From positions 2,046,001 to 2,110,000 of the forward strand of contig NZ_CP060587.1 in NCBI RefSeq assembly GCF_014334735.1: a stretch of 64,000 nt of DNA, read 5' to 3'. The DNA comes from Aeromicrobium senzhongii. Its GTDB lineage: Bacteria > Actinomycetota > Actinomycetes > Propionibacteriales > Nocardioidaceae. A model generated the notes under the pieces. The model did not search any database, was not told the DNA's origin, and worked only from the letters and a program-made list of their open reading frames with translations. Positions 1,550-14,776 of the stretch are shown here, piece by piece. Numbering within the stretch: position 1 is the stretch's first letter; each line of letters opens with the position of its first letter. The translations under genes and the position numbers were made by a program.

Positions 1550-4500
1550 ATGCGATTGCTCGTCACTGCGGAGGCGGCCTCGTCGGGGGAAAGTCGCGAC
1601 GCGATCGTCGCCTATTCCGCCGCGAGCACCGTCGGGGATCTCGAGTCCCTGCTGCAGCAACTCTTCGGTCAGCGGCCACTCCACGCCGACGTCGCCGACG
1701 TCATCGACCTCGACGCACGACGTGGCGGCGCGGGCGACCGCACCGGTCCCGGCCTGTACCTCGGTTCGCGGCGACTCGACCCGGACACGACCCTCGTGGG
1801 CGCCGGGATCCGTCACGGCGCGGTCGTGGGACTCGGCGGTCCCAGTCGGCACCGCGCCCAGGAGCCCCAGGGTCTGGTCGAGGTGCGGGTCAGCTCGGGA
1901 CGGGGCGCGGGTCGCGTGCACCGCCTCGGCATCGGCACCTGGACCATCGGCTCGGCCGAGCACTGCGCCATCCGGATCGCCGGCGCTCCCGAGATCGCGG
2001 CGCGGCTCGAGGTCGACGCCCAGGGAACGGTCGAGGTCACGGCCGACGAGGCAGCCCGTGACCTCACGGTTCCCGTCCCCGCCCGGCGCGAGCCGCCGAG
2101 CGAGCCCATCGTTCTCGCGGCGAGCGTCGCCACCCGCCAGCGCCGCAGGTTCCGGCGCAAGCGCCCGGGCCTGAGCGCGCTGCAGCAGGGCCGCCAGGTC
2201 GACCCCGGCGCCCCGCTGCCCCTCGTGCGTCTCGACCGCGAGGCCGTGACCGCGCCGACCACCTGGAACGCCGGCGCCGTGCTCGGCGTCGCGAACGTCC
2301 TGTTCGAGCTCGGCAGCGTCAGCGCTCCCGACGCGTCCCTGTCCCCCTCGGCGATCGGCCCGGAGCTGGACTACAACCGCCCGCCGCGACTGCACCCGCC
2401 GGCGCGCACCAGCGAGTTCTCGCTGCCCAGCGAGCCCAAGCGTCCCGACAAGTCGCCGATCCCGGTCATCATGATGCTCTCGCCCATGGTCATGAGCGGC
2501 TTCATGTACTGGCGCACGGGATCGATCTTCTCGCTCATGTTCATGATCCTGATGCCGATCATGATGCTGTTGAACGCCACGGGCACCCGGCGCCAGCAGA
2601 AGGTCCGCTACCAGGAGCAGCTGGCCGAGTTCCACCGTCGTCGCGCCGACGTCGAGAAGGCCGCCGTCGACTCGCTGACCTCCGAGCGCGGCCAACGTCG
2701 GTCGATCTACCCCGACCCGGCCTCGGTCCTGCTGTTCGCGACCGGCCCGCGCTCGCGGTTGTGGGAGCGCCGCCGCTGGGATCCGGACTTCCTCGAGCTG
2801 CGCCTCGGCACGAGCGACCTGCCCTCGGACGTGATCGTCAAGGACTCCACGCGCGAGCAGCACGAGGGGCCGCTGCGCTGGACCGCCCCCGACGTCCCGG
2901 TCGTCGTCCCGCTGGCGCCCACGGCCGTCCTGGGCATCTGCGGACCCCCGGACGAGTGCCTCACGACCACCTCGTGGCTCGTCGCCCAGGTGGCCGCACT
3001 GCACTCCCCCACCGACGCGTCGCTGTGGGTCTTCACCGACCGCACCAACGCCACGGCCTGGGAGTGGACCAAGTGGCTGCCCCACGCCCGCACCAGCGAG
3101 GACCATCCCCGCGCTGCCCGGCTGGCGATCGACGAGGACGATCGCGCGGGCATGATCTCGGAGCTGTCGGCGATCGTCGACCGCCGCAAGGAGCTGGACA
3201 CCGACGAGCGCGAGTCGCTGCCCTCGATCGTCGTGGTCCTGGACGGCGCCCGCGAGCTGCGCATGGCCCCGGGCATGACGTCGCTGCTGAAGTCCGGCGC
3301 GTTCGTGCACGTCTACTTCATCTGCCTCGACCGCACCGCGCGCGAGCTGCCCGAGGAGTGCCGCGCCGTCGTCGAGCTGCACGGCGAGCTGCTCGACCTC
3401 GAGACCACCGCCGAGCGTCACATCGACGGCGTGCGCCGCGACATCGTCGACTCGGCCTGGCTCGAGCGCCTCGGTCGCGCCCTCTCGCCCATCCGCGACG
3501 TGAGCACCGAGGACCTCAGCTCCAGCCTGCCGGCCGCCAGCCGCCTGCTCGACGTGCTCGGTCTGGACTCGCCCACCGGCGACGATCTCGTCCGGACCTG
3601 GGCCGGTGGCGGCCGCACGACGAAGGCCGTGATCGGCGAAGGGCTGGACGGCCCCTTCAGGATCGACGTCCGCGCGGACGGCCCGCACGGCCTCATCGCC
3701 GGCACCACCGGATCGGGCAAGTCCGAGCTGCTACAGACGATCATCGCGTCGCTGGCCGTGGGCAACCGGCCGGACGAGTTCAACTTCGTCCTGATCGACT
3801 ACAAGGGCGGCGCGGCCTTCATGGACTGCCAGCACCTGCCCCACACGGTCGGCATGGTCACCGACCTCGACGGCCACCTCACGACCCGCGCCCTCGAGTC
3901 GCTCGGCGCCGAGCTGCGCCGGCGCGAGCACCAGCTGGCCGACGCCCAGGCCAAGGACATCGAGGACTACCTGGCCGCACGTCAGCCCGGCGACGAGCCG
4001 ATGCCCCGACTGCTGATCATCATCGACGAGTTCGCGGCGCTCGTGGCCGAGCTGCCCGACTTCGTCACCGGCCTGGTCGACGTCGCCCGACGCGGCCGCT
4101 CGCTGGGTGTCCACCTGATCCTGGCCACGCAGCGGCCGGCCGGCGTGGTCAACGCCGAGATCAAGTCCAACACCAACCTGCGCATCGCCCTGCGCGTGAC
4201 CGACGCCAACGACTCCGACGACGTCATCGAGTCCAAGGTCGCGGCCGAGATCCCCAAGTCGTTCCCCGGTCGCGCCTACGCGCGACTGGGCCACTCGTCG
4301 CTCACGCCCTTCCAGAGCTCGCGCGTCGGTGGCCGTCCGGTCGGCGACGAGCGAGCCGAGCTGCGCTCGCGCGGGTTCGGCATCGACGAGCTGGTCGCTC
4401 CGCCGAAGGCCGCCGGCGACGGCGAGGAGGACGTGTCGATCCCGACCGACCTGGCGACCCTGGTCGGCGCCGTCCGTGAGGCGAACGACCTCATCGGGCT

Positions 4501-6109
4501 CGAGCCGATGCGCAAGCCGTGGCTGCCGCCGCTGCCCGAGACGCTCACCCTCGACGAGCTCGAGGTCGAGCCGGCGCCCGCGATCGGCGAGAAGGCGGAC
4601 ATCCCCCCGATCGTCTTCGGCCGCGGCGACCTGCCCCACCTGCAGCAGCAGGAGGTCGCGAGCTGGGACCTGCAGCGCGCCGGGCACCTCGTGATCGCCG
4701 GTCAGTCCCGCTCGGGCCGTTCGTGGTCGTTGCGGACGATCGCCGCCGCCATCGCCCGGCAGACGGCGCCGACCGACGTCCACGTCTTCGGCATCGACGC
4801 CGGCAACAACGCCCTGTTGCCGCTCATGTCGCTGCCCCACGTCGGCGCCGTCGTCACCCGCACGCAGACGGACCGGATCTTCCGCCTCTTCGCCCACCTC
4901 GGGCAGGAGCTGACGAAGCGCCAGCAGGTGCTGGCCGAGCAGGGCTTCGCCGACATCGCCGAGCAGCGCGCGGCCGTCGACGGCCCCGACCGGATGCCCT
5001 ACCTGGTCGTGCTGCTCGACCGGCTCGAGGGCTTCACCACGGCGTTCGAGTCCGTCGACGGCGGCGTGCTGCTCGAACGGCTCGTCGGTCTCCTGCAGGA
5101 GGGCGTCGGCGCCGGCATCCGGATCGTGATCGGCGCGGACCGCTCCGGCATCCTGGGGCGCTACTCGTTGCTCGTCGACGACCGGATCGTGCTGTCGATG
5201 AGCGATCCCTCCGACTTCTCGGTCGTGGGCCTGCCGACCAAGCAGGTGCCCGCGCACATCCCGCCGGGCCGCGGCTTCCGGGCCGGCGAGCGCCCGCAGG
5301 AAGTGCAGTTCGCGATGATCGATGCGTCCGGCGAGGGCACGGCCCAGGTCCGGGCGATCCACGAGCTGGGCCGCCTCGTGGCCGAGCGCTACGGCGATCT
5401 GCCGCGCAGCCTGCGGCCTCACCGCATCGACGAGCTGCCGGTGGCGATCAGCCTCGACGAGGCGCTCGGCCTCGAGCCGTCGGACGCGGCACTGAGCCCC
5501 AGCTTCATCCCGATCGGCGTGGGCGGCGACACCCTGAGCCTCGAGGGCTTCGATCCGCTCGCGACGGGTCCCGGCTTCCTGGTCGCCGGTCCGCCGCGGT
5601 CCGGACGCAGCTCGGCCCTGCTCATCCCGGTCAGTCAGCACCTGCAGCACCGCCGGGACGTCCTGGTGATCGCCCCGAGGCGCTCCCCGCTGCGCGATCT
5701 CGACGACCGGCGACTGCAGCTGTTCACCGGCTCCGAGCCCATCGACGAGATCCGTGAGGCGCTGTCGCGGCTGCGCACCCAACACCTCGTGGTCGTCGAC
5801 GACTTCGAGGTCGTGGGTGCCGACTCACCCCTGGGGCAGCTGCTGGGCGAGACCTACGGCGCCATGCGCGACACCCCCAACGCGATGATCATCGGCGGCG
5901 GCATCGACGAGCTGGGCGCGGTCTACCGAGGCCTGCCGGCCGACCTCAAGCGCGGGCGAACCGGCCTGGTCCTGTCCCCTCGCGCGTCCAACGACGGCGA
6001 CGTGCTGAACGCCCGCCTGCCCCGATCGGTCGGCGCCGCCGTGCCGCCGGGGCGCGGCCTGCTGATCAACCCCACCGGGTATCGCTGGATCCAGGTGCCC
6101 AAGGCCTGA
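1550..6109 (+). CDS. EssC/EccC-type FtsK/SpoIIIE ATPase with N-terminal FHA-like region
   Basis: A 1519-aa single-chain type VII secretion ATPase. Residues about 1-230 look like the EssC N-terminal FHA-type beta-rich region. Two hydrophobic segments follow at about 303-345 (Met-rich), then three P-loop domains. Domain 1 has a canonical Walker A GTTGSGKS (718-725) and Walker B LLIIIDEFA. Domain 2 has GQSRSGRS (from about 1051) and domain 3 GPPRSGRS (from about 1347); both replace the Walker lysine with arginine. Family knowledge: EccC/EssC is the inner-membrane motor that recognises WXG100 substrates. The length is close to Firmicute EssC (about 1480 aa) rather than to split EccCa/EccCb. The start is leaderless, following a TACCCT -10. 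It heads the type VII-like locus reaching to 14776. No EccB, EccD, EccE or mycosin gene is visible nearby. Confidence 0.88.
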   Translation: MRLLVTAEAASSGESRDAIVAYSAASTVGDLESLLQQLFGQRPLHADVADVIDLDARRGGAGDRTGPGLYLGSRRLDPDTTLVGAGIRHGAVVGLGGPSRHRAQEPQGLVEVRVSSGRGAGRVHRLGIGTWTIGSAEHCAIRIAGAPEIAARLEVDAQGTVEVTADEAARDLTVPVPARREPPSEPIVLAASVATRQRRRFRRKRPGLSALQQGRQVDPGAPLPLVRLDREAVTAPTTWNAGAVLGVANVLFELGSVSAPDASLSPSAIGPELDYNRPPRLHPPARTSEFSLPSEPKRPDKSPIPVIMMLSPMVMSGFMYWRTGSIFSLMFMILMPIMMLLNATGTRRQQKVRYQEQLAEFHRRRADVEKAAVDSLTSERGQRRSIYPDPASVLLFATGPRSRLWERRRWDPDFLELRLGTSDLPSDVIVKDSTREQHEGPLRWTAPDVPVVVPLAPTAVLGICGPPDECLTTTSWLVAQVAALHSPTDASLWVFTDRTNATAWEWTKWLPHARTSEDHPRAARLAIDEDDRAGMISELSAIVDRRKELDTDERESLPSIVVVLDGARELRMAPGMTSLLKSGAFVHVYFICLDRTARELPEECRAVVELHGELLDLETTAERHIDGVRRDIVDSAWLERLGRALSPIRDVSTEDLSSSLPAASRLLDVLGLDSPTGDDLVRTWAGGGRTTKAVIGEGLDGPFRIDVRADGPHGLIAGTTGSGKSELLQTIIASLAVGNRPDEFNFVLIDYKGGAAFMDCQHLPHTVGMVTDLDGHLTTRALESLGAELRRREHQLADAQAKDIEDYLAARQPGDEPMPRLLIIIDEFAALVAELPDFVTGLVDVARRGRSLGVHLILATQRPAGVVNAEIKSNTNLRIALRVTDANDSDDVIESKVAAEIPKSFPGRAYARLGHSSLTPFQSSRVGGRPVGDERAELRSRGFGIDELVAPPKAAGDGEEDVSIPTDLATLVGAVREANDLIGLEPMRKPWLPPLPETLTLDELEVEPAPAIGEKADIPPIVFGRGDLPHLQQQEVASWDLQRAGHLVIAGQSRSGRSWSLRTIAAAIARQTAPTDVHVFGIDAGNNALLPLMSLPHVGAVVTRTQTDRIFRLFAHLGQELTKRQQVLAEQGFADIAEQRAAVDGPDRMPYLVVLLDRLEGFTTAFESVDGGVLLERLVGLLQEGVGAGIRIVIGADRSGILGRYSLLVDDRIVLSMSDPSDFSVVGLPTKQVPAHIPPGRGFRAGERPQEVQFAMIDASGEGTAQVRAIHELGRLVAERYGDLPRSLRPHRIDELPVAISLDEALGLEPSDAALSPSFIPIGVGGDTLSLEGFDPLATGPGFLVAGPPRSGRSSALLIPVSQHLQHRRDVLVIAPRRSPLRDLDDRRLQLFTGSEPIDEIREALSRLRTQHLVVVDDFEVVGADSPLGQLLGETYGAMRDTPNAMIIGGGIDELGAVYRGLPADLKRGRTGLVLSPRASNDGDVLNARLPRSVGAAVPPGRGLLINPTGYRWIQVPKA

Positions 6110-6186
6110 GACCCGGCCCAGCATGGTTCGAAAGGCCCGCAACCACGCTATCGTGGCCGGACTCGACCAGAGGGGGGCTGGCGCGG

Positions 6187-6522
6187 ATGGAGACCAACTA
6201 CTACAAGGTGGCCCTGGGCCATGCGATGACGAGGGTCGCGTTCCAACGCGATCTGTTCGAGGGCTCTCCCTCGCCCGCCAGCGCGATCACCACGCCCGTC
6301 GTGGCGAACGACGGCTGGGAGTGCAGCGCCGCCGACGACTGGGCCGACGAGCTGCGCGAGCGGCTCCAGGGCCTGTACGAGGCCTTCGCCCAGGCGCACG
6401 CCGACCTCGCCGCCGAGCACGACGCCGAGCCCGACGAGGTCGAGGACGGCCACCGGCACGGGAACGCGTACCGCCCCCATGCGTACGCGCGACCGCACCG
6501 CAACATCCCGGTGGGCCCGTGA
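6187..6522 (+). CDS. Small WxC...W protein of type VII-like cassette 1
   Basis: A 111-aa acidic, helix-prone protein with no signal peptide. Its centre, NDGWECSAADDW...LYEAF, matches the protein at 11852 (NGGWVCKEADTW...ITEAF), so the two are paralogues sharing N-x-G-W-x-C-x-x-A-D-x-W. The C-terminus is His/Arg/Pro-rich. It has the size and the central Trp/Gly feature expected of a WXG100-like partner protein, but I cannot assign a family. A purine-rich ribosome site (GGGGGG) lies about 9 nt before ATG 6187. It begins 77 nt after the EssC-like stop, and its stop is 1 nt before the next ATG. Inference: a secretion partner or chaperone of the large protein that follows. Confidence 0.7.
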   Translation: METNYYKVALGHAMTRVAFQRDLFEGSPSPASAITTPVVANDGWECSAADDWADELRERLQGLYEAFAQAHADLAAEHDAEPDEVEDGHRHGNAYRPHAYARPHRNIPVGP

Positions 6523-6523
6523 C

Positions 6524-8500
6524 ATGACGGTCAAGATGAACGCCGCCGCCCTCGACGAGGCCATCGCGGCGGCGGGTGCGCTCGCCAGCCGCATCGAGAA
6601 CGCCCGCTTGGCGTGCTTGCGGGCCGTCCCGCCTGGCGGCCCCACCCTCACGTCCCTGAGCGTCCACGGCATCACGGGCAGCGCCCCCGAGTGGCTGCGT
6701 GAGCAGGCGAAGGACCCGCTCGGCGTCGTGCGCGACCTCGCCGACCTGCTGAGCTCCGAGGACGGCTCGTCCGTGACGTGGGACGGGTCCACGACCGGCA
6801 CGATCGCCGACCTCAAGCAGGAGCTGGCCCGTCGCATCGCCGACGACCTCGACGACCTCGACGACGTGCGCTCGCCGGAGGACCTCGCCCGGGTGGAGGC
6901 CGCGACCGCCCTGCTGATGAAGTACGTCGACGACCCCGACGTCACCGCGGCCGTCGCGACGGAGCTGGGACCCGACGGCGTCGCCGCGCTCATCGAGCAG
7001 GCGGCGGCGATGACCGGCCCCTACTCGAACTACCCCAACCAGTACGCGACGTACGAGGACTCCAGCTACGGCGAGGAGTACGACCGCGTGCTCGCGCTGC
7101 AGGACGACCTCGCCACCGCCCTGAGCGGCGCCGTCGCCACCGCCTCGCGCAGCCGCCGGCTCTCCGAGGACTACGGCCGCGAGCTCGTCGAGAGCGGCGG
7201 GCCCTTGGCTCCGGCCGTCCTGTTCGACTACGCACACCGCAACGGACAGGTGTTCGGCTCGGATTTCCTGACCAGCGCCGGCGAGGCGCTGCTCGAGTGG
7301 GAGGGCAGCGGCGAGGGGATGTACTGGGCGCAGTTCAACGGTGATCACCCCTTCGGCACGGCCGACCGCAACGAGCTCAGGGACCCCGTCGTGCAATGGA
7401 TGGAGTCCCTCTCGGACAACCCGCAGGCGTCGCAGGAGGTCTTGCTCGACCCCGACCGGGCCGCCTACCTGCTCGAGCGGCAGTCTCTCGGCGAGGAGAC
7501 CTCCGGCAACGCGGCCGGCATGGTGCTGCAGACCGCCACGATCGACCAGGCGCTCAATCACGGCTCGTCCGGCCAGAACGCCGCCACCATCGCGACCTGG
7601 GCCATCGAGCATTTCGGTGGCGACGCGAAGGCCCAGGACGGCGTCAACGAGGAGCTCGGCGGCATCGTTGCGACCTACATCCGCGACGTCGACCGGATCG
7701 CTTTCAACCGCAGTTCCGCCGAGGGCACGGGGACCTACGGGCCGGGCGGCCTGCCGCCGGGCACGAACTTCCCCGGCGAGGGGTTCCCGCCCCACGGGAT
7801 CATGCTGAACCGCGACTCCCTGACGAACCTGCTGGGCGACATCGGCGGCAACGACCAGGCCGTCTCGGTCATCGGCGGCGCGGCGACCCGGCTCAACGAG
7901 GTCCGGCTGCAGCACGGTATCGACGAGGTCATCGGCAGCGGCGTGGACCTCAGTGGCGCGGTGGGCGTCGACAACCCCGTTTTCGCCGCCACCCGGTCGA
8001 ACGCCGGCCTGCAGGGCTTCCTGTACGACAACATGCTCGAGGGCGGCATCAGCGCCGCCCGCGACAACGTGGCCCAGCGCCGGCGGATGGCCCAATTGCT
8101 GCTCCTGCCGACCGAGTTCGTCAAAGTGCCCGGCGGACCGGTCGGGTCGTACGTCGTGGGCGAGGTCAAGAGCCAGCTCACGAACGCGTTCGTCGGCAAC
8201 GGCGTCTCGGACTCGATCAGCGGCGCCAACGACATGTTCGACGACATCCAGACGCACTCCCAGCTGCAGGCTCTGCACACGTTGGCCACCTCCGACGCCG
8301 GTTTGCCCGTCGGCGACCTGCACGACACGTGGCCGGTCGACGAGCACGGCCGGCCCAAGCCGATCGACGAGCTGACCAACGCCGAGCAGACGGACATCAT
8401 CAACATGGCCAACGGTGGTGGCGACGGCTACGCGTCCGCCGCCTACAGCGGCTCGCTCGACGGTCGCGACCAGCTCCTGAGGCAGTACGGAGGTTCCTGA
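6524..8500 (+). CDS. Large helical protein of type VII-like cassette 1 (DUF6571-like)
   Basis: A 658-aa protein with no signal peptide or membrane segment, acidic and predicted mainly helical. It is paralogous to the protein at 12207. Shared landmarks are an N-terminal VKxxxxxLDEAIAAAGALA-type helix, a TELGPDG motif near residue 150, YGRELV/FGRDLV, DNPQA/ENPQA, and N(A/S)(G/S)LQGF in the last third. From memory it resembles actinobacterial proteins annotated DUF6571; a profile search would settle this. ATG 6524 was chosen because it starts 1 nt after the preceding stop; the reading frame stays open 45 nt further upstream into the previous gene. Inference: a type VII substrate or large structural partner, since it is always bracketed by the small WxC protein and a lipoprotein. 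Confidence 0.75.
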   Translation: MTVKMNAAALDEAIAAAGALASRIENARLACLRAVPPGGPTLTSLSVHGITGSAPEWLREQAKDPLGVVRDLADLLSSEDGSSVTWDGSTTGTIADLKQELARRIADDLDDLDDVRSPEDLARVEAATALLMKYVDDPDVTAAVATELGPDGVAALIEQAAAMTGPYSNYPNQYATYEDSSYGEEYDRVLALQDDLATALSGAVATASRSRRLSEDYGRELVESGGPLAPAVLFDYAHRNGQVFGSDFLTSAGEALLEWEGSGEGMYWAQFNGDHPFGTADRNELRDPVVQWMESLSDNPQASQEVLLDPDRAAYLLERQSLGEETSGNAAGMVLQTATIDQALNHGSSGQNAATIATWAIEHFGGDAKAQDGVNEELGGIVATYIRDVDRIAFNRSSAEGTGTYGPGGLPPGTNFPGEGFPPHGIMLNRDSLTNLLGDIGGNDQAVSVIGGAATRLNEVRLQHGIDEVIGSGVDLSGAVGVDNPVFAATRSNAGLQGFLYDNMLEGGISAARDNVAQRRRMAQLLLLPTEFVKVPGGPVGSYVVGEVKSQLTNAFVGNGVSDSISGANDMFDDIQTHSQLQALHTLATSDAGLPVGDLHDTWPVDEHGRPKPIDELTNAEQTDIINMANGGGDGYASAAYSGSLDGRDQLLRQYGGS

Positions 8501-8501
8501 C

Positions 8502-9020
8502 GTGCGACGAGCGTTGATCCTGGGTGTAGCCGTGTCGTCCCTCCTGGCCGCCAGTGGCTGCCAGGAGCCGTCGTACGACGCGGAGCGCGCGTGCTCCATC
8601 CCCACCGACGTCCTCGCAGCGGTGCTCGGCACCGACCGCTTCAGCGCCCCGTCGGAGCGCATCGAGCGACTCCCGTTCACCGAGACGTCCACGCGGGGCA
8701 GCGCAGGCTGCCGCATCGACGCCGGGGACGTGAGCCTCTATGCCGAGGCGCTCGTCCTGCCTTCCACCGAGATCCCGCAGCGCGAGGAAGTCATCCGCTC
8801 CGAGAGCGACAGCTTCGCGCTGCTCGACGGCATCGCTCGCGCCGACGGCCGGCGCGGCGGCTGGGTGTGCGGGTCCGTCGCCGTCTCCGTCGAGCTCGAC
8901 GGCAACCGCGACGCCGACCCGTCCGACATGCGCGCGGCCATCGAGGCCGTGGCCGACGAGGCGGGCTGCTACACGGCACCCCCGAGGCCGTGGGACCCCG
9001 CGACCACCGGGACGTCCTGA
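8502..9020 (+). CDS. Lipoprotein of type VII-like cassette 1
   Basis: A 172-aa protein starting at GTG 8502, with GGAGG 8 nt upstream and 1 nt after the previous stop. The N-terminus MRRALILGVAVSSLLAASGC is a lipoprotein signal; the lipobox ASGC is slightly off consensus. The mature part has further cysteines (ACSIP, AGCRI, WVCG, AGCY), which suggests disulfides outside the membrane. No enzymatic motif is visible. It holds the same position as the lipoprotein at 14177, third in the cassette, although the two sequences are only weakly alike. Inference: an extracytoplasmic partner of the cassette's large protein. Confidence 0.75.
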   Translation: MRRALILGVAVSSLLAASGCQEPSYDAERACSIPTDVLAAVLGTDRFSAPSERIERLPFTETSTRGSAGCRIDAGDVSLYAEALVLPSTEIPQREEVIRSESDSFALLDGIARADGRRGGWVCGSVAVSVELDGNRDADPSDMRAAIEAVADEAGCYTAPPRPWDPATTGTS

Positions 9021-9062
9021 CGGGTCAGTCGACCTCGGTCACGGATGCTCCTGGCAGGAAAA

Positions 9063-9092
9063 GACGCCCGGCCCCTAGGGGAGCCGGGCGTC
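9063..9092. terminator. Stem-loop terminator after cassette 1
   Basis: GACGCCCGGC pairs with GCCGGGCGTC around an inner CCCT/AGGGG stem carrying a one-base bulge. It lies between the + strand lipoprotein stop and the - strand WXG100 remnant. It is a diverged copy of the perfect hairpin at 10876-10905, so it was probably duplicated together with the WXG100 unit. There is no U-tract, as is common in actinobacteria. Confidence 0.6.
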
Positions 9093-9100
9093 CAGTCGGG

Positions 9101-9328
9101 TCAGCGGGGCGACTGCAGGGGCGTCAGCACCGGGTGCTGATCGGCTTCCTTGGCACCCTCGGCGAACTTGTTGTGCTGGAACGCCACGTCGGTACCGGCG
9201 TTGGAGAACGCCTGGCACAGCTGGGTCAGAGCCTGCTTGAACTGCACCCGCCGGTTCGTCCCCCAAGTGAAATCACGGGACCAGGATGCTGGCCATGAGC
9301 GTAACGGAGAGTTCTGTCCGCAGCAGCC
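9101..9328 (-). pseudogene. Truncated third copy of the WXG100-like gene
   Basis: Bases 9101-9249 match the 3' end of the gene at 10914 with one visible substitution, encoding the last 49 residues (ending HPVLTPLQSPR). At 9249/9250 the sequence jumps directly to the 5' non-coding region of that gene: the GGTTCGTCCCCC segment onward is again similar to about 11236-11312. An internal deletion has therefore removed the ribosome site, the start codon and about the first 52 codons. Substitutions in the upstream part have broken its GGACA-N4-TGTCC repeat. No ATG or GTG with a ribosome site restores this frame. Seen directly: a deletion-derived remnant. Confidence 0.85.
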
Positions 9329-9337
9329 TGAGCGATT

Positions 9338-10282
9338 TCAGTCGACCTCGGTGACGACCGACTGGATCTCGCCGACCGCGAGGCTCTGCGCCGGTGCGCT
9401 GCGGTTCATCGCTGCCGGGAACGAGAGCGGGCCGTTGGGCAGGTTGATCACCAGGTCGTACGCCACCGTCAGGGTCACGTCGTAGGACCCGGCGCGCCGG
9501 TAGGCGTGCTCGACGGCGCCGGCCTGACCGACCGCCGCGTTCCGCACCCCGACACCACTGCCGGACCCGCCGTCACCGAAGCTCCACGTGACCTCGCCGG
9601 GGGTGAACACCACCGGGATCGTGAGGCCGAACAAGGTGACGTCGACGGTCACCTCGGTCGCCTCGGCCGCGAAGTTGGTCGGGACGTTGACGTACGACAT
9701 CGCGGCGGGCTCGATCACGAACGACGGCGTCGGCGCGAGAGCGCGGGCCCGGTCGATGATGTCGTCGACCGTGATCGTCGGCGGCTCGGACTCGCGCGGC
9801 TCGTCCAGCCCTCGGCACACCACGCCGGCGCGGCTGAAGCCCGCCTCCTCGTCCTCGGCCACGTTGTCCGCGGTCATGCGACGTTCGAACACCCAGTACC
9901 GGAAATCGCCTTCCTCGGGGCACTCGTTGGCTCCGCCGCACATCACGTCAGGGTCCATCACGTAGTCGCGGACCCCCGGCCCGGTGGCGCGGACGATGTT
10001 GGCCGGGCACCACGGCGTGTGGACCCGTTGGGTCCACGGGCCCGGGATCGGGATCGTCGTGTTGCCGGGAGGCCCGGGGTTCGGGCCCGGGGTCTGACCG
10101 GGCTGCGTCGCACACAGGTCGACGGTGCCCTCGCCGTCGTGCGAACCGTCGTAGTCTTCATCGGGACAGTCGGCGGCAGCCACGGGCACCTGGGCGATCT
10201 CGATCGCCGTCATGGCCCCGACCGTCATCGTCGTGGTGACCGCCAGGGCACCGACGAGCCGGCACAGGCGGGACGCCGTCAT
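9338..10282 (-). CDS. Secreted PKD-like domain protein
   Basis: A 314-aa protein with an N-terminal signal (hydrophobic ALAVTTTMTVGAMTAIEIAQ, cleavage about VAAA|DC). A Pro/Gly-rich linker follows (TPGPNPGPPG), then a Cys-containing region. A C-terminal beta domain carries the PKD-type signature VTWSFGDGGSGSG and HAYRRAGSYDVTLTV. PKD folds usually mediate extracellular contacts. ATG 10282 overlaps the stop of the preceding lipoprotein gene by 4 nt (ATGA), so the two are coupled. The pair sits inside the type VII-like locus on the opposite strand to the cassettes, downstream of a WXG100 gene. Inference: a surface or secreted accessory of the locus; it could also be an unrelated insertion. Confidence 0.75.
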   Translation of the reverse strand: MTASRLCRLVGALAVTTTMTVGAMTAIEIAQVPVAAADCPDEDYDGSHDGEGTVDLCATQPGQTPGPNPGPPGNTTIPIPGPWTQRVHTPWCPANIVRATGPGVRDYVMDPDVMCGGANECPEEGDFRYWVFERRMTADNVAEDEEAGFSRAGVVCRGLDEPRESEPPTITVDDIIDRARALAPTPSFVIEPAAMSYVNVPTNFAAEATEVTVDVTLFGLTIPVVFTPGEVTWSFGDGGSGSGVGVRNAAVGQAGAVEHAYRRAGSYDVTLTVAYDLVINLPNGPLSFPAAMNRSAPAQSLAVGEIQSVVTEVD

Positions 10283-10854
10283 CCCAAGTCGTAGGTCAGG
10301 AGCTGCCACTGATCGCCCTTCCACTGGATGTTGGTCTTGAACGGCAATGCCTCGGCGGCGTTGACCGTGCCGATCTTCTTGCCGGTGTCCTTGCGGACGG
10401 ACTCGCCCTGAGGGATGTCCAGGGCCAGGCGGACCTGGAAGTAGACCTCGTCGTTGACGCTCGGCTCGTCCACGAGGTCGTGACGGGCCGGGCCCGAGCT
10501 GACCGTCAGCTTCTCGATCTTGCCGTCGTCGTAGTTGTCGACCCATCCTTGGCACGAGGTGCAGGTGGCGAGATCGGAGATCGCGGTCAGGGCCGGCACG
10601 TCACCGGTCGCCATCATGTACAGCACGGTGTCGGCGGCGAAGACGGCGAACGCCTCCGCGCCCTCCTGGCTGAACTCGTCCGCGGGGCGCTGTGGCTTGG
10701 CCGTGGCCGACCAGCTCGGAGTCGCCGACGGTGATGGCGAGGCCGACGTGGCGTCGGTCCTCGGCGGGGCGGCGTCGTCATCGTCGTTGCCGCACGCCGC
10801 CGTGCCCAGGGCGAGCGACAGGACGAGCGCGGCCAGAGCGGGAGATCGTCGCAT
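10279..10854 (-). CDS. Lipoprotein, DUF6318-like
   Basis: A 191-aa lipoprotein with signal MRRSPALAALVLSLALGTAAC, then an Asp-rich and Ser/Pro/Thr-rich linker of about 35 residues. The folded domain has a conserved-looking ATCTSCQGW motif. The aromatic/Ala-rich segment FAADTVLYMMATGDVPAL before CTSCQ resembles, from memory, the actinobacterial DUF6318 lipoproteins. AAGGAG lies about 7 nt before ATG 10854. The stop overlaps the start of the PKD-like gene. A strong hairpin at 10876-10905 separates it from the WXG100 gene upstream, so it probably has its own promoter or receives read-through. Function unknown; probably anchored on the outer face of the membrane. Confidence 0.72.
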   Translation of the reverse strand: MRRSPALAALVLSLALGTAACGNDDDDAAPPRTDATSASPSPSATPSWSATAKPQRPADEFSQEGAEAFAVFAADTVLYMMATGDVPALTAISDLATCTSCQGWVDNYDDGKIEKLTVSSGPARHDLVDEPSVNDEVYFQVRLALDIPQGESVRKDTGKKIGTVNAAEALPFKTNIQWKGDQWQLLTYDLG

Positions 10855-10875
10855 GGAGTACTCCTTGAGGGACAG

Positions 10876-10905
10876 GACGCCCGGCCCCTGGAGGGGCCGG
10901 GCGTC
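10876..10905 (-). terminator. Perfect 13-bp stem-loop after WXG100 copy B
   Basis: GACGCCCGGCCCC pairs perfectly with GGGGCCGGGCGTC around a TGGA loop, 8 nt past the WXG100 stop at 10914. It is a likely intrinsic terminator or attenuator, giving high WXG100 expression and low expression of the lipoprotein/PKD pair behind it. Confidence 0.75.
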
Positions 10906-10913
10906 TCGTCGGG

Positions 10914-11219
10914 TCAGCGGGGCGACTGCAGGGGCGTCAGCACCGGGTGCTGATCGGCTTCCTTGGCGCCCTCGGCGAACTTGTTGTGCTGGAACGCCAC
11001 GTCGGTACCGGCGTTGGAGAACGCCTGGCACAGCTGGGTCAGAGCCTGCTTGAACTGCACCCACGCCTCGTTGAACTCCTTGGCGCCGGTGGACTGCCAC
11101 TCCTCGTTCGCCTGGTTCAGCGACGCGTCCACGTTGTTGATCATCGTGTCGGTTTCCTGCATCGACTTGTTCAACGTGTTGTACAGCGCGTAGAGATCTT
11201 CGATCCGAGCTTGCACCAT
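10914..11219 (-). CDS. WXG100-like protein, copy B
   Basis: A 101-aa helical-hairpin protein starting MVQARIEDLYALYNTLNKS. The turn between the helices reads NEEWQSTGAKEF, where the usual W-x-G is W-Q-S with the Gly two residues later, so the signature is atypical. Length and helix-turn-helix layout fit EsxA/WXG100 substrates. The C-terminal tail (EADQHPVLTPLQSPR) has no clear YxxxD/E export motif. AAGGAG precedes ATG 11219 by about 9 nt. The protein is identical to copy C; the genes differ by one silent base out of 306. It lies 4.8 kb downstream of the EssC-like ATPase. Inference: the main secreted substrate, dosage-amplified or kept identical by gene conversion. Confidence 0.85.
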   Translation of the reverse strand: MVQARIEDLYALYNTLNKSMQETDTMINNVDASLNQANEEWQSTGAKEFNEAWVQFKQALTQLCQAFSNAGTDVAFQHNKFAEGAKEADQHPVLTPLQSPR

Positions 11220-11289
11220 GGGTATGTCTCCTTCGTCGGTTCGTCCCCCGAGTGAACTCACGGGACCAAGATGCTGGCCATGAGCGTAA

Positions 11290-11305
11290 CGGACACTTCT
11301 GTCCG
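11290..11305. promoter_or_regulatory. Inverted repeat CGGACA-N4-TGTCCG upstream of WXG100 copy B
   Basis: A perfect 6-bp inverted repeat with a 4-nt centre lies 70 nt upstream of the copy B start. The matching position in the truncated copy (about 9306-9321) is mutated, and copy C has unrelated upstream sequence. It may be an operator that distinguishes the two intact genes; a simple stem-loop cannot be excluded. Confidence 0.35.
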
Positions 11306-11339
11306 CAGCAGCCCGAACATTCTCGGGGCCCGGCTCCGA

Positions 11340-11645
11340 TCAGCGGGGCGACTGCAGGGGCGTCAGCACCGGGTGCTGATCGGCTTCCTTGGCGCCCTCG
11401 GCGAACTTGTTGTGCTGGAACGCCACGTCGGTACCGGCGTTGGAGAACGCCTGGCACAGCTGGGTCAGAGCCTGCTTGAACTGCACCCACGCCTCATTGA
11501 ACTCCTTGGCGCCGGTGGACTGCCACTCCTCGTTCGCCTGGTTCAGCGACGCGTCCACGTTGTTGATCATCGTGTCGGTTTCCTGCATCGACTTGTTCAA
11601 CGTGTTGTACAGCGCGTAGAGATCTTCGATCCGAGCTTGCACCAT
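11340..11645 (-). CDS. WXG100-like protein, copy C
   Basis: A 101-aa protein with the same amino-acid sequence as copy B, and therefore the same atypical WQSTG turn. The nucleotide sequences differ at a single site (a silent G/A in the Asn-Glu-Ala region). The ribosome site GAGGAGACAAACTC-ATG and the upstream region differ from copy B, so the pair shares coding sequence but not control. It is divergent from the cassette 2 operon at 11852. Role as for copy B: an expected substrate or targeting partner of the EssC-like motor. Near-total identity implies very recent duplication or ongoing conversion. Confidence 0.85.
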   Translation of the reverse strand: MVQARIEDLYALYNTLNKSMQETDTMINNVDASLNQANEEWQSTGAKEFNEAWVQFKQALTQLCQAFSNAGTDVAFQHNKFAEGAKEADQHPVLTPLQSPR

Positions 11646-11851
11646 GAGTTTGTCTCCTCAGTCCGTTCGTCCCCCCGAATGCACTCAGCACAGGGACTGT
11701 CAGTGATGAAGCATGATGCTAGCGGACGATGCTTCGTTCAGGGCGCGAAGCGACCATGCTCACATGGCCCGTTGTGACCAGATGGGCAGGACGAAAGCCC
11801 GAACCGTCTGTAGTCTGCTCACCGAGAGCACACGATCACTTGGGGGAATCG

Positions 11852-12196
11852 ATGACGCCTGAAGACGCCGAGGACAAGACCGAGCCGAACTTGTTCCGCT
11901 CCACCCTGCAGTCGGCGAAGTCGACCGTGACCACCTGCGGCGACAACGTGTACTCCGGCTACGGGTCTCCCCTGGACGCCATCGCGAACCCCCTGGCCAA
12001 CGGCGGGTGGGTCTGCAAGGAGGCCGACACCTGGATCGCCGAGATGAAGGACCAGTGCACCGGGATCACCGAGGCTTTCGACGACGCCGTCACGGCGATC
12101 CAGACTCGGATCGGCACCGAGCCAGACAAGGTTCCCGAGAACGACTGGCGGGGCAACAGCTGGCCCCGTCAGTGGCGCGTTCAGAACATGTACTGA
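11852..12196 (+). CDS. Small WxC...W protein of type VII-like cassette 2
   Basis: A 114-aa protein, paralogue of the 6187 product. It has NGGWVCKEADTW at the centre, ITEAFDDAVTAIQTRIGTEPDKV after it, and a Trp-containing tail (NDWRGNSWPRQWRVQNMY). There are two further Cys (TTCGDN, DQCTG). No signal peptide. GGGGGA lies 4-5 nt before ATG 11852. The gene following it starts 10 nt after its stop. Size and central Trp motif suggest a WXG100-like helper, but no family can be named. It is divergent from WXG100 copy C across about 200 bp. Confidence 0.72.
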   Translation: MTPEDAEDKTEPNLFRSTLQSAKSTVTTCGDNVYSGYGSPLDAIANPLANGGWVCKEADTWIAEMKDQCTGITEAFDDAVTAIQTRIGTEPDKVPENDWRGNSWPRQWRVQNMY

Positions 12197-12206
12197 GGAT
12201 GCGGCC

Positions 12207-14177
12207 ATGACCACCGTCAAGATCGACATCGACCAGATCGGCGCAGCCATCACGGCGGCCGAGGACCTCGCCGGCGCCATCGACACCCAGAGCGCCGCGG
12301 CCCGGACCGCCTCCCCCATCAGCCTGCCGTCCCTGGCCGACGGCACCGTGGGCAAGAAGTCGCAGTGGATCCGCGACCACCTCGAGGACCTCACGACCCG
12401 GCGTGACCTGGCGATCCTGCTGGACACCGAAGGCACCGGTAGCGCCAGCTACACCGTCACCCAGGACACCTTGACCAGCGTCAAGGAGATGCTCGGCGAG
12501 GAGCTGGCCGACTCGGTCGCCGACCTCGACCACGAGAGCGATCCCGAGGAGGTCGCCCGCGTCACGGCGATGCTCGACACGTGGAACAAGGACGGCGACG
12601 TGATGGCCGCCATGTTCACCGAGCTCGGCCCCGACGGCACCGTCGGCGCCATGTCCAACATCTCCTCCCTGATGGGATACGGCGGCTCCGGCGACCCCGA
12701 CGCCTACGCCGGCCTGGCCGAGAGCCTGCGCACCGGACTGTCCACCGCCTCGAACGATCCCGGATTCCCCGCCGAGCAGTTCGGCCGCGACCTCGTGCGC
12801 TACAGCGTCGCGCCCCTGCTGACCGACGAGGAGCAGCGCGCCTTCGCCGAGAACTTCCCCATGGGCATGAACGGCGCGAACATCCTCACGTACTTCATGC
12901 AGGACACGAACTACGACGACGACTTCCTGCTGGGCGCCGCCCGGTCGTTGGACGAGTTCGAGCAGCTCGCCAAGGACGGCAACTTCCCCGCCGACGTCTG
13001 GTACAGCCACAACGGCCACGGCCCGCTCGACACGGGCAACGAGACGGGTTGGTACGACGACCCGATGGCCGCGATCATGCACAACTTCGGCGAGAACCCG
13101 CAGGCCGGCCTGACCTTCTTCACCGAGGACGCGGATCGCCAGACGTACTACTTCAACGATCGCGAGTGGAAGGCCGACGGCTACGGCGGCATCTCGCACG
13201 CCGTCGAGGGCATCGGCACCGACGCCACGAACCTCAAGGACAACGCCGAGGACACGACGAACCTCGTGTCGCAGTTCCTCGACGAGGTGGCCAACAGCTC
13301 GGGCTTCACCCCCGAGGACGCCAAGGCAGCCTCCCCGCACATCGCGGACCTGCTGAAGTTCTACATGCCGGCGGTCGACACGACCTTGCGCAACGGCGCG
13401 AACGAGGGCGACTCCGGGTCGGGCCCGTTGTCGATCGATCACTTCGGGTCCTTCGAGCACTACCCGATCCTGTTCAAGGACGACCTGGACACCCTGATGA
13501 AGGTGGCGATGGGCACCCAGGACGGCACCCAGAGCATCGCCGAGGGCGTCGGTGGCTACCAGAAGACGCAGCTGAACAACATCGCGGCGCAACTGGCGCA
13601 GAACCCGGACGACCCGGGCCTGCGCACCGAGCTGCGCGACATCCTGGAGCGCAACGCGTCGCTGCAGGGCTTCACCGAGTTCTCGGTCGGGCAGGTCGAG
13701 ATCGACGGCGCAGCCGACCGCGACGCCCAGCGTCAGGCCTACATCGACTTGGTCTCCGACGCGGCCGGGATGATCCCGATGCCCGGCGCCGACCAAGTCG
13801 GCGACGTCGGAAGCAAGCTGATCGATTACGGCTGGAGCCAGGCGTCCGAATTGGGCAAGGATGCCGCCGGCAACGCCTGGACCTCCGAGGCGGCGGGCGC
13901 CACCGACAACGCCGAGGACCGCGCGGAGGCCGGCTCCAACCGGGTCAAGGTCGACTCCTACCTGTCCATGATCGAGTCCGGCCTCATCCCGCGTGACGAG
14001 GTGCCCGACCAGTGGTTCAAGAACGGCCGACTGATCGAGCTGGGGGACATCCCGCCCGAGCAGATGGGGTCCTACACGCAAGGCGCCATGAACGGGGTCA
14101 ACGAATTCGCGACGAACCATGACCTCGAGGGGGCGTACCGCGAGTCGTTCCTCAAGTTCTACGCCCCGGTGAAGTGA
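12207..14177 (+). CDS. Large helical protein of type VII-like cassette 2 (DUF6571-like)
   Basis: A 656-aa acidic protein without signal peptide or membrane segments, paralogous to the 6524 product. The N-terminal helix is TVKIDIDQIGAAITAAEDLA. TELGPDG lies near residue 150, FGRDLV near 195, ENPQAG near 300, and NASLQGF at about 485. The C-terminal third contains a Gly-rich hydrophobic stretch (AAGMIPMPGADQVGDVGSKL) and diverges from the cassette 1 paralogue, as expected if C-termini carry specificity. GAGG lies 8 nt before ATG 12207. The stop TGA shares one base with the next ATG. Inference: a type VII-dependent effector or scaffold; no catalytic motif is visible. Confidence 0.75.
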   Translation: MTTVKIDIDQIGAAITAAEDLAGAIDTQSAAARTASPISLPSLADGTVGKKSQWIRDHLEDLTTRRDLAILLDTEGTGSASYTVTQDTLTSVKEMLGEELADSVADLDHESDPEEVARVTAMLDTWNKDGDVMAAMFTELGPDGTVGAMSNISSLMGYGGSGDPDAYAGLAESLRTGLSTASNDPGFPAEQFGRDLVRYSVAPLLTDEEQRAFAENFPMGMNGANILTYFMQDTNYDDDFLLGAARSLDEFEQLAKDGNFPADVWYSHNGHGPLDTGNETGWYDDPMAAIMHNFGENPQAGLTFFTEDADRQTYYFNDREWKADGYGGISHAVEGIGTDATNLKDNAEDTTNLVSQFLDEVANSSGFTPEDAKAASPHIADLLKFYMPAVDTTLRNGANEGDSGSGPLSIDHFGSFEHYPILFKDDLDTLMKVAMGTQDGTQSIAEGVGGYQKTQLNNIAAQLAQNPDDPGLRTELRDILERNASLQGFTEFSVGQVEIDGAADRDAQRQAYIDLVSDAAGMIPMPGADQVGDVGSKLIDYGWSQASELGKDAAGNAWTSEAAGATDNAEDRAEAGSNRVKVDSYLSMIESGLIPRDEVPDQWFKNGRLIELGDIPPEQMGSYTQGAMNGVNEFATNHDLEGAYRESFLKFYAPVK

Positions 14178-14776
14178 TGCGCGCGCTCCTCGTCACTGCC
14201 GCTCTCGCTGCGGCGCTCGCTCTGGGCGGGTGCGCCGACGACGCCGGCTCGGACTCCGACGACCCGCTGGCCGGGCATCCCGAGCTCCTGCAGGTGTCCG
14301 ACCTGCCGCCGGTCGACTCGGTCGAGGTGAGCGAGCAGACCAACGTCTCCAAGACGAACTGCGCCGCCATGGACGCGGAGTGGAACCTCGCCGCGTCGAA
14401 GGACTTCGTCTACGCCTGGTACGAGCTGGAGGGCGACAGCGACACGACGGTGCGCTCGGCGGTCCAAGGGCCGGCCGCCACGAGCGACGCCATCGACGAC
14501 ACCTTCACGCGGCTCGAGTCGATGATCGCCGAGTGCGTGGCCGGTGGAGCGAGCACCGGCACCTTCGAGCGGTTGGAGGGTCTCCCGGACGGGGCGGTGG
14601 GCTTCGTCGCCACGCAGGACACCTCCAACGGCACCCAGACCACCGAGCGCGCCTACGTCAAGCTCGACGATCAGCGTGCGGCGGTCGTCACCGTGGTGCA
14701 CACCGGTGACGGAGAGGCCCCGGTCAGCGTGACCGAGCTGCTCCCGAAGGCGGTCGAGCGGGCCTCCGACGCCTGA
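14177..14776 (+). CDS. Lipoprotein of type VII-like cassette 2
   Basis: A 199-aa lipoprotein. MRALLVTAALAAALALGGC ends in a good lipobox (LGGC), followed by an Asp/Ser-rich linker. The mature domain has paired Cys (TNCAAM, AECVAGG) and a beta-rich C-terminal half. ATG 14177 overlaps the preceding stop (TGATG), which implies coupling; a GTG at 14174 is the alternative start. It is the third gene of cassette 2, matching the lipoprotein at 8502 in position. The substrate or partner is unknown. It ends 3 bp before the convergent cysteine desulfurase gene. Confidence 0.75.
   Translation: MRALLVTAALAAALALGGCADDAGSDSDDPLAGHPELLQVSDLPPVDSVEVSEQTNVSKTNCAAMDAEWNLAASKDFVYAWYELEGDSDTTVRSAVQGPAATSDAIDDTFTRLESMIAECVAGGASTGTFERLEGLPDGAVGFVATQDTSNGTQTTERAYVKLDDQRAAVVTVVHTGDGEAPVSVTELLPKAVERASDA

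What the first reader, a model, noticed from the sequence alone, without database searches (positions are those of the whole stretch)
1550..14776. Type VII-like locus built from a duplicated three-gene cassette
Seen: a single-chain EssC-like ATPase is followed by two tandemly organised units of the same design: a WxC...W protein of about 112 aa, an acidic helical protein of about 657 aa, and a lipoprotein. The large proteins share an N-terminal helix, TELGPDG, FGRDLV/YGRELV and NxLQGF but diverge at the C-terminus. No EccB, EccD, EccE or mycosin is nearby. Inference: a minimal or variant secretion system in which each cassette supplies its own cargo and surface lipoprotein. The large proteins may be DUF6571-type, but their link to type VII export seems poorly described.
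Basis: partly seen in the sequence, partly recalled or inferred. Interest (0 to 1): 0.72.

Follow-up and report, generated by a model that had tools for sequence, protein, structure and literature searches.

The report
Pilus-linked type VII effector locus
A soil-type bacterium carries a small protein-export engine beside genes for an adhesive pilus, together with sets of a guide protein, a large protein to be exported and a guard protein; relatives of the large protein end in toxin domains, so these sets look like weapons against neighbouring bacteria, though nothing has been tested at the bench.

Summary
In detail: one EssC-type ATPase and two small/large/lipoprotein cassettes. Three corrections. 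(1) A minus-strand block was missed: two identical WXG100 genes, a truncated third, a DUF6318 lipoprotein and a PKD protein. (2) The cassettes are old paralogues, not a local duplication; their lipoproteins are unrelated. (3) A Tad pilus operon stands divergently beside the ATPase, with a third, hydrolase-bearing unit beyond.

The large proteins are DUF6571. Relatives carry an N-terminal WXG100 domain (hhalign 96%). In 11 relatives the same trunk bears another tail (ADP-ribosyltransferase, nuclease, unknown kinds) with a matching soluble third gene. I read the cassette as WXG100-like guide, effector and immunity protein of a T7SS without EccB and EccD.

TadA lies within 15 kb of an EssC in 64 of 128 TadA copies compared (about 1% expected). 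Tad-linked T7SSg/h were reported from a few Bacillota, the link left open (PMC11217815). Against: export motif YxxxD/E absent; many cassettes lie away from any EssC. Structure prediction never ran.

The parts
1550..6109 (+). EssC-type (single-chain EccC-like) FtsK/SpoIIIE ATPase, 1519 aa
   Evidence: TIGR03928 584 bits over aa 274-1378, under cut-off; best solved relatives 4nh0 (294 bits), YukB 9qks (250), EccC5 (180)
1550..1876 (+). N-terminal ubiquitin-like domain fused to the ATPase (aa 1-109)
   Evidence: hhalign of 19 ATPase N-termini against EccD N-termini: 82%, score 37.8; TadZ control 17.6; 30 column shuffles max 16.8. No Pfam match of its own
6187..6522 (+). small1, 111 aa, W-E-C; WXG100-like guide protein (inferred)
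   Evidence: paralogue of small2; profile of its family against WXG100 48.6%, score 27.6, shuffles max 15.7
6524..8500 (+). large1, DUF6571, 658 aa; candidate effector
   Evidence: PF20211 33.0 bits, cut-off 27; trunk 132 and C-half 154 bits with own profiles; groups with L077
8502..9020 (+). lipo1, lipoprotein (start GTG 8502 or GTG 8532); candidate immunity protein
   Evidence: lipobox LLAASGC; same family as the third gene of L077
9101..9247 (-). remnant of a third WXG100 gene, lacking its N-terminal half
   Evidence: repeat family D1; 46 bits to the WXG100 profile; relative L069 has an intact gene at this place
9338..10282 (-). secreted PKD-domain protein, 314 aa
   Evidence: PKD_4 30.1 bits, cut-off 27; signal-peptide-like start
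10279..10854 (-). DUF6318 lipoprotein, 191 aa
   Evidence: PF19843 33.6 bits, cut-off 23.8
10914..11219 (-). WXG100 protein, copy 2 (101 aa)
   Evidence: PF06013 33 bits, cut-off 27.3
11340..11645 (-). WXG100 protein, copy 1 (101 aa, identical to copy 2)
   Evidence: PF06013 33 bits; 300 nt 99% identical; profile matches EsxA 2vs0, E 1.7e-5
11852..12196 (+). small2, 114 aa, W-V-C; WXG100-like guide protein (inferred)
   Evidence: as small1
12207..14177 (+). large2, DUF6571, 656 aa; candidate effector
   Evidence: PF20211 79.7 bits over aa 1-602; trunk 197 and C-half 212 bits
14177..14776 (+). lipo2, lipoprotein, 199 aa (GTG 14174 possible); candidate immunity protein
   Evidence: lipobox LALGGC; same family as the third gene of L069, L091, L094, L104, L106
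1..1481 (-). end of the divergent Tad pilus operon: TadZ-like (1-585, runs on upstream) and SAF-domain CpaB-like protein (582-1481)
   Evidence: TadZ-like family among Tad loci; SAF 24.8 bits. The rest is in L003:11626-19956: TadA (T2SSE 100.9 bits), T2SSF, TadE/G-like, BTAD protein

Best explanation
A type VII secretion locus of an undescribed actinobacterial variety beside a Tad pilus operon. The single EssC-type ATPase, with a ubiquitin-like domain fused to its N-terminus, and the WXG100 protein form the export engine; EccB and EccD are absent from this genome. Each cassette is an effector module. The WXG100-superfamily small protein pairs with the helical N-terminus of the DUF6571 protein and brings it to the ATPase; the DUF6571 protein is an antibacterial effector; the third gene protects the producer and its kin. 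In the window the guard is a lipoprotein outside the membrane, so the DUF6571 C-terminal half probably acts outside the cytoplasm, on membrane or wall. Shown by sequence: families, gene order, conservation, swapping of tails on a common trunk, co-variation of tail and third gene, Tad proximity. Inferred: export by this ATPase, guide function, toxicity, immunity, and any working link with the pilus.
For: Engine: only one EssC-type match at E 1e-50 (2 of 5 candidates scored; with the EccCa model the next ORF has 107 bits) and only two WXG100 genes over cut-off in the genome. Large N-termini with an explicit W-x-G (15 sequences) match WXG100 at 95.8%, score 50.0 against a shuffle maximum of 14.7; TadZ control 9.4. 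38 of 49 large genes follow a small gene. Tail swapping: 11 proteins of family f23, from 10 genomes, share trunk and pre-toxin stretch (47-75% between kinds) but bear ADP-ribosyltransferase (61.4 and 56.4 bits), Endonuclea_NS_2 (44.9 and 46.5 bits; a third by tail similarity) or unknown tails; their third genes have no lipobox and no membrane stretch in 11 of 11. Where the DUF6571 C-half is present, the third gene is a lipoprotein in 34 of 42 (28 by script, 6 by eye) and membrane-anchored by eye in 4 more. Third-gene family follows tail family; lipo1 and lipo2 are unrelated while small and large are paralogous. All 10 genomes with swapped tails have exactly one EssC match, so an unlinked cassette there would have to use it if type VII export applies. 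Tad: 64 of 128 TadA copies within 15 kb of an EssC; in G330 one strand runs from TadZ through TadA, Flp, TadE-like genes, BTAD protein, WXG100, EssC, small, DUF6571 and third gene.
Against: No YxxxD/E export motif in the window's WXG100, small1 or small2, and in only 6 of 38 small proteins. None of the 11 swapped-tail genes lies near the EssC of its genome (positions). In the order 8 of 22 genomes, and outside it 16 of 20 stretches, show no EssC near DUF6571. The small-to-WXG100 match is moderate (48.6%; a smaller first set gave 7.5%), and no window small protein matches WXG100 in Pfam. The window's own C-half resembles no known toxin and no solved structure; lipo2 neither. Of 42 third genes, 4 are neither lipoprotein nor anchored. 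Some TadA are far from EssC: all 36 misses of the 69-76% class are of genus g9. No structure could be predicted.
Confidence: 0.66

Rival explanations
1. The large proteins of the window are not toxins but surface or pilus-associated structural proteins; the lipoprotein is their membrane tether or assembly partner. The toxin-tailed relatives are a later side branch.
For: No toxin domain is recognised in the window's large proteins; closeness to Tad genes and to a PKD protein; a lipoprotein is a natural tether; the C-half is conserved across many genomes, which is unusual for a toxin end.
Against: Trunk with swapped tails and matching soluble third genes; the lipoprotein family changes with the large clade, lipo1 and lipo2 being unrelated; tandem lipoproteins after a hydrolase-ended relative in the same genome.
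Confidence: 0.22
2. The cassettes are T7SS effectors, but not tied to this Tad-linked engine: DUF6571 modules ride with whatever T7SS the genome has, and Tad and EssC are neighbours by inherited gene order only.
For: 8 of 22 genomes have the cassette away from EssC, each with an EssC/EccC match elsewhere; in G055 and G100 WXG100, DUF6318, PKD and the cassette sit together far from EssC and Tad (L091, L092). DUF6571 also stands beside EccD-bearing EssC loci (G067, G091, G181, G185, G244 or 56 by profile) and in loci without Tad in the stretch.
Against: This genome has one EssC, so here the choice hardly arises. Tad proximity recurs in families f1, f3, f20, f22 and f23 with different orientations, and 10 of 17 DUF6571-positive f23 genomes have a DUF6571 match within 27 kb of TadA (tables).
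Confidence: 0.4
3. The ATPase is a DNA translocase or other FtsK-like motor, and nothing here is secreted by a type VII route.
For: All three EssC/EccC models score under their cut-offs; EccB and EccD are missing; no YxxxD/E motif.
Against: Full-length match to EssC over three ATPase domains, far above FtsK models (584 against 66 bits); best solved relatives are EccC and YukB; WXG100 genes in the same locus and in 30 of 35 Tad-linked EssC loci examined.
Confidence: 0.05

Closest known systems
T7SSg and T7SSh (Garrett, Higginson and Palmer 2024, PMC11217815)
   Same: EssC-type ATPase, WXG100 protein and ubiquitin-like part beside a full Tad locus; no EccB/EccD type components named for them in the passages read.
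   Different: Reported only from Bacillota; their ATPase lacks N-terminal FHA domains and their Ubl is a separate gene. Here Actinomycetota, Ubl fused to the ATPase, DUF6318/PKD pair and DUF6571 cassettes. TsgL, TshG and TshM were not looked for.
T7SSa (ESX)
   Same: EccC-like ATPase domains and WXG100 protein.
   Different: No EccB or EccD in this genome; EccE and mycosin not searched.
LXG effector modules of T7SSb with Lap guide proteins and immunity proteins such as TipC (PMC9600955 and PMC6193138, abstracts)
   Same: Small WXG100-like partner, large protein with helical N-terminus and variable toxin end, guard gene next to it; TipC is anchored outside the membrane.
   Different: The trunk is DUF6571, not LXG; one small partner instead of two Lap proteins; lipoprotein guards; actinobacterial.
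Type VII lipase toxins with C-terminal targeting domain (mentioned in PMC11217815; TslA/TilA recalled, not looked up)
   Same: Hydrolase effector with guard genes resembles the third unit of this genome.
   Different: Targeting part is C-terminal there; here the helical part is N-terminal.

Membership tests
Type VII secretion system (general) | EssC/EccC-type membrane ATPase | tested here: met
   584 bits to TIGR03928 over aa 274-1378, though under the curated cut-off; best solved relatives EccC and YukB
Type VII secretion system (general) | WXG100 protein in the locus | tested here: met
   two genes, 33 bits each, cut-off 27.3
Type VII secretion system (general) | YxxxD/E export motif in a substrate or its partner | tested here: not met
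   absent from WXG100, small1 and small2 of the window
Type VII secretion system (general) | secretion shown | not testable with these tools
   needs a secretome
T7SSa (ESX) | EccB and EccD | tested here: not met
   no EccB match, EccD 15.9 bits against 94.95
T7SSa (ESX) | EccE and mycosin | not tested
T7SSb | EssA, EssB, EsaA | not tested
   not searched genome-wide
T7SSg/T7SSh | Tad pilus genes adjacent | tested here: met
   TadA 2.6 kb from EssC
T7SSg/T7SSh | separate Ubl gene; ATPase without N-terminal FHA | tested here: not met
   Ubl-like domain is fused to the ATPase; an FHA-like stretch is hinted only by a 15.6-bit sub-cut-off match
DUF6571 | match over Pfam gathering score | tested here: met
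   33.0 and 79.7 bits, cut-off 27
Polymorphic toxin (DUF6571 family) | common trunk with swapped toxin tails | tested here: met
   11 relatives of family f23
Polymorphic toxin (DUF6571 family) | cognate guard gene next to each tail | tested here: met
   third-gene family follows tail family by clustering; guarding itself untested
Polymorphic toxin (the window's proteins) | recognisable toxin end | tested here: not met
   large1 and large2 end in the DUF6571 C-half; no toxin family matched
WXG100 superfamily (small1, small2) | helical hairpin of about 100 aa with W-x-G turn | tested here: inconclusive
   W-x-C here, W-x-G or W-x-S in relatives; profile match 48.6% above shuffles, 7.5% with a smaller set; no Pfam match; no structure predicted

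The most novel reading that the evidence does not exclude
In Actinomycetota the Tad pilus and the EssC/WXG100 unit work as one machine: the pilus makes the contact or forms the outer path, and the ATPase, without EccB and EccD, feeds it DUF6571 effectors escorted by WXG100-like guides.
Probability: 0.25. Interest if true: 0.92.

Novelty: new variant of a known kind. Interest (0 to 1): 0.72.

Why it matters
If right, it gives DUF6571 a role (trunk of type VII effectors in actinobacteria), adds an undescribed Tad-linked T7SS in Actinomycetota, and makes the question left open in PMC11217815, whether Tad pili and T7SS belong together, testable in harmless actinobacteria across several families.

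Tried and rejected
Rejected: 'duplicated cassette' (tree: large1 pairs with L077, large2 with L069 and then L091/L104; tandem pairs do occur in G117 and G102). Rejected: real + strand genes at about 10.9-11.8 kb (antisense of WXG100). Rejected: canonical ESX. Of little use: a 17-row alignment was too divergent for a collection scan; the narrower scan gave 4 loci. Solved-structure searches found no relative of large or lipo2. My iterated 'lipo' and 'DUF6318' profiles drifted to other lipoproteins, so I did not count with them. No held paper names DUF6571 or DUF6318.
Full report
What is there. The window is G000:C1:2046001-2110000 of a 3.13 Mb genome in one contig. The genus is probably Aeromicrobium: Aeromicrobium flavum (L104) holds a large2 of 72% identity inside the same cassette. 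On the + strand stand the ATPase (1550-6109), small1, large1, lipo1, then small2, large2, lipo2, with gaps of 77, 1 and 1 bp and of 10 and -1 bp. Between the cassettes, on the - strand, stand two WXG100 genes with identical proteins, a DUF6318 lipoprotein, a PKD protein and a truncated WXG100. Upstream and divergent is a Tad/Flp pilus operon. Beyond it is a third large protein: it joins the large-family profile (267 bits), though the trunk profile did not list it, and it ends in Abhydrolase_8 (43.0 bits, cut-off 20.5); two lipobox genes follow.

The engine. The ATPase matches EssC/EccC models strongly but under each cut-off. It is the only match in the genome at E 1e-50 (2 of 5 candidates scored). 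The two WXG100 genes are the only ones over cut-off; at E up to 1 that model also rings in 13 of 14 control genomes, so weak matches mean nothing. EccB is missing and EccD gives noise; among 22 genomes of the genus 4 have EccB and 10 have EccD over cut-off. The N-terminus of the ATPase profiles to the ubiquitin-like N-terminus of EccD (82%, score 37.8; TadZ control 17.6; 30 column shuffles, maximum 16.8). So the usual separate Ubl seems fused here.

The cassettes. Large1 and large2 are DUF6571. In the order 22 of 245 genomes have DUF6571 and 195 of 245 an EssC/EccC match. Comparing positions, 14 of the 22 have an EssC within about 20 kb (G051 only through my gene calling); 8 do not, and each of these has a match elsewhere. 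In the class 38 of 296 genomes have DUF6571; of 20 stretches fetched outside the order 4 hold an EssC. Of 49 large genes (trunk over 100 bits, repeats with the same first 80 residues removed) 38 have a gene of 80-175 aa directly upstream on the same strand. Fifteen large N-termini with an explicit W-x-G match WXG100 at 95.8%; the small proteins of the window's kind match it at 48.6%, the window-type large N-termini at 24%; all score above 40 shuffles, the TadZ control does not. A first, smaller comparison gave only 7.5%. Sub-cut-off Pfam matches include WXG100, PPE, EspA/EspE and EspC, besides unrelated families. YxxxD/E is absent from the window's WXG100 and small proteins and present in 6 of 38 small proteins, which speaks against standard recognition.

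Effector and guard. In family f23, 11 trunk proteins from 10 genomes lack the C-half and end otherwise: ADP-ribosyltransferase (L151, L173), non-specific endonuclease (L152, L175; L179 by 85-86% tail identity), and unknown kinds (L135/L145; L176; L177/L178/L180). Trunk plus pre-toxin stretch is 47-75% identical between kinds. Tails are 23-42% identical, against 25% mean and 33% maximum for 60 shuffles; the values above that maximum all involve L176 or the short tails of L135/L145, and L176 clusters by its last 150 residues with the nuclease kind while its third gene differs. Third genes have no lipobox and no membrane stretch in 11 of 11; that of L176 is DUF6188 (98.6 bits), the other third genes scanned matched no family over cut-off. 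Where the C-half is present, the third gene is a lipoprotein in 34 of 42 (28 by script with upstream extension, 6 by eye), anchored by a membrane stretch in 4 by eye, neither in 4. L139, L148 and L169 have a trunk without a recognised C-half and are followed by lipoproteins (L139 by eye); trunk matches under 100 bits were not classed. Related genomes are not independent, so the Fisher values only describe. In the window lipo1 and lipo2 are unrelated while small and large are paralogous, and each lipoprotein family follows its large clade. This is the pattern of toxin and immunity, as in LXG modules, where TipC guards from outside the membrane (PMC6193138, PMC9600955: abstracts and outlines seen). 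None of the 11 swapped-tail genes is near the EssC of its genome, but each of those 10 genomes has exactly one EssC match.

The pilus link. In the order 32 of 80 TadA copies lie within 15 kb of an EssC: 21 of 24 of the class at least 80% identical to the own TadA (the other 3 are in genomes of 150-590 contigs), 11 of 47 of the 69-76% class, 0 of 9 below 60%. Outside the order it is 32 of 48: 17 of 20 in f23, 11 of 11 in f20, 4 of 7 in f22, 0 of 10 elsewhere. About 1% is expected even for 25 kb. Against tight linkage: all 36 misses of the 69-76% class are of genus g9, 8 of them at 50-61 kb. In f23 the order can be one strand from TadZ through TadA, Flp, TadE-like genes, BTAD protein, WXG100, EssC, small, DUF6571 and third gene, with gaps of 171 and 178 bp around WXG100 (L156). 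Of 35 EssC loci with a Tad gene in the fetched stretch, many chosen for that closeness, 30 have WXG100, 18 a PKD-like protein, 18 a DUF6571 trunk and 2 EccD. From the tables, 10 of 17 DUF6571-positive f23 genomes have a DUF6571 match within 27 kb of TadA.

Compared with the literature. PMC11217815 (abstract, sections 5, 7 and 15, and passages seen) defines T7SSa-j, names only a and d for Actinomycetota, and says that T7SSg and T7SSh of Bacillota always sit beside Tad genes, link unclear. My searches for Tad with T7SS terms showed no other paper that describes such a linkage: I looked at passages of PMC5720513, PMC4572677, PMC4965825 and PMC11004387, which treat the two systems apart, and saw the rest only as listings. 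No held paper contains DUF6571. The library lacks most subscription journals, so absence there proves little. PMC3482391 (passages) lists WXG-type T7SS toxins in actinobacteria in general.

Verdict. The cassette is best read as guide, DUF6571 effector and immunity lipoprotein of a Tad-linked type VII system without EccB and EccD (0.66). That the pilus and the export unit form one machine is open (0.25). The first, returned version of this report gave 0.68 for the main reading; I lowered it because none of the swapped-tail genes lies beside an EssC.

Noticed in passing
9096-9395, 10909-11208, 11335-11634: Three copies of a WXG100 block: two 99% identical over 300 nt, one truncated; the cut edge abuts a 92% copy (9249-9331) of the WXG100 upstream region. 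Relative G070 has an intact gene at the place of the truncated one (L069:7801-8106).
   Followed up: partly
9064-9093 and 10874-10905: Two similar G+C-rich hairpins lie just downstream of the truncated WXG100 and of WXG100 copy 2 (minus strand), terminator-like by eye.
   Followed up: no
L003:9027-11625 (G000:C1:2036027-2038625, outside the window): Third large protein with an Abhydrolase_8 end and two tandem lipobox genes, on the far side of the Tad operon.
   Followed up: partly
L091, L092 (G055, G100): WXG100, DUF6318, PKD and a whole cassette sit together away from EssC and Tad, so they can move as one block.
   Followed up: partly
9338-10854: DUF6318 lipoprotein and PKD protein recur together near EssC in several relatives; function unknown.
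   Followed up: partly
L003:11626-14271: BTAD-domain protein of about 880-1000 aa at the end of the Tad operon in many loci.
   Followed up: no
L085:12207-14240: A DUF6571 copy in G085 has an in-frame stop and looks broken.
   Followed up: no
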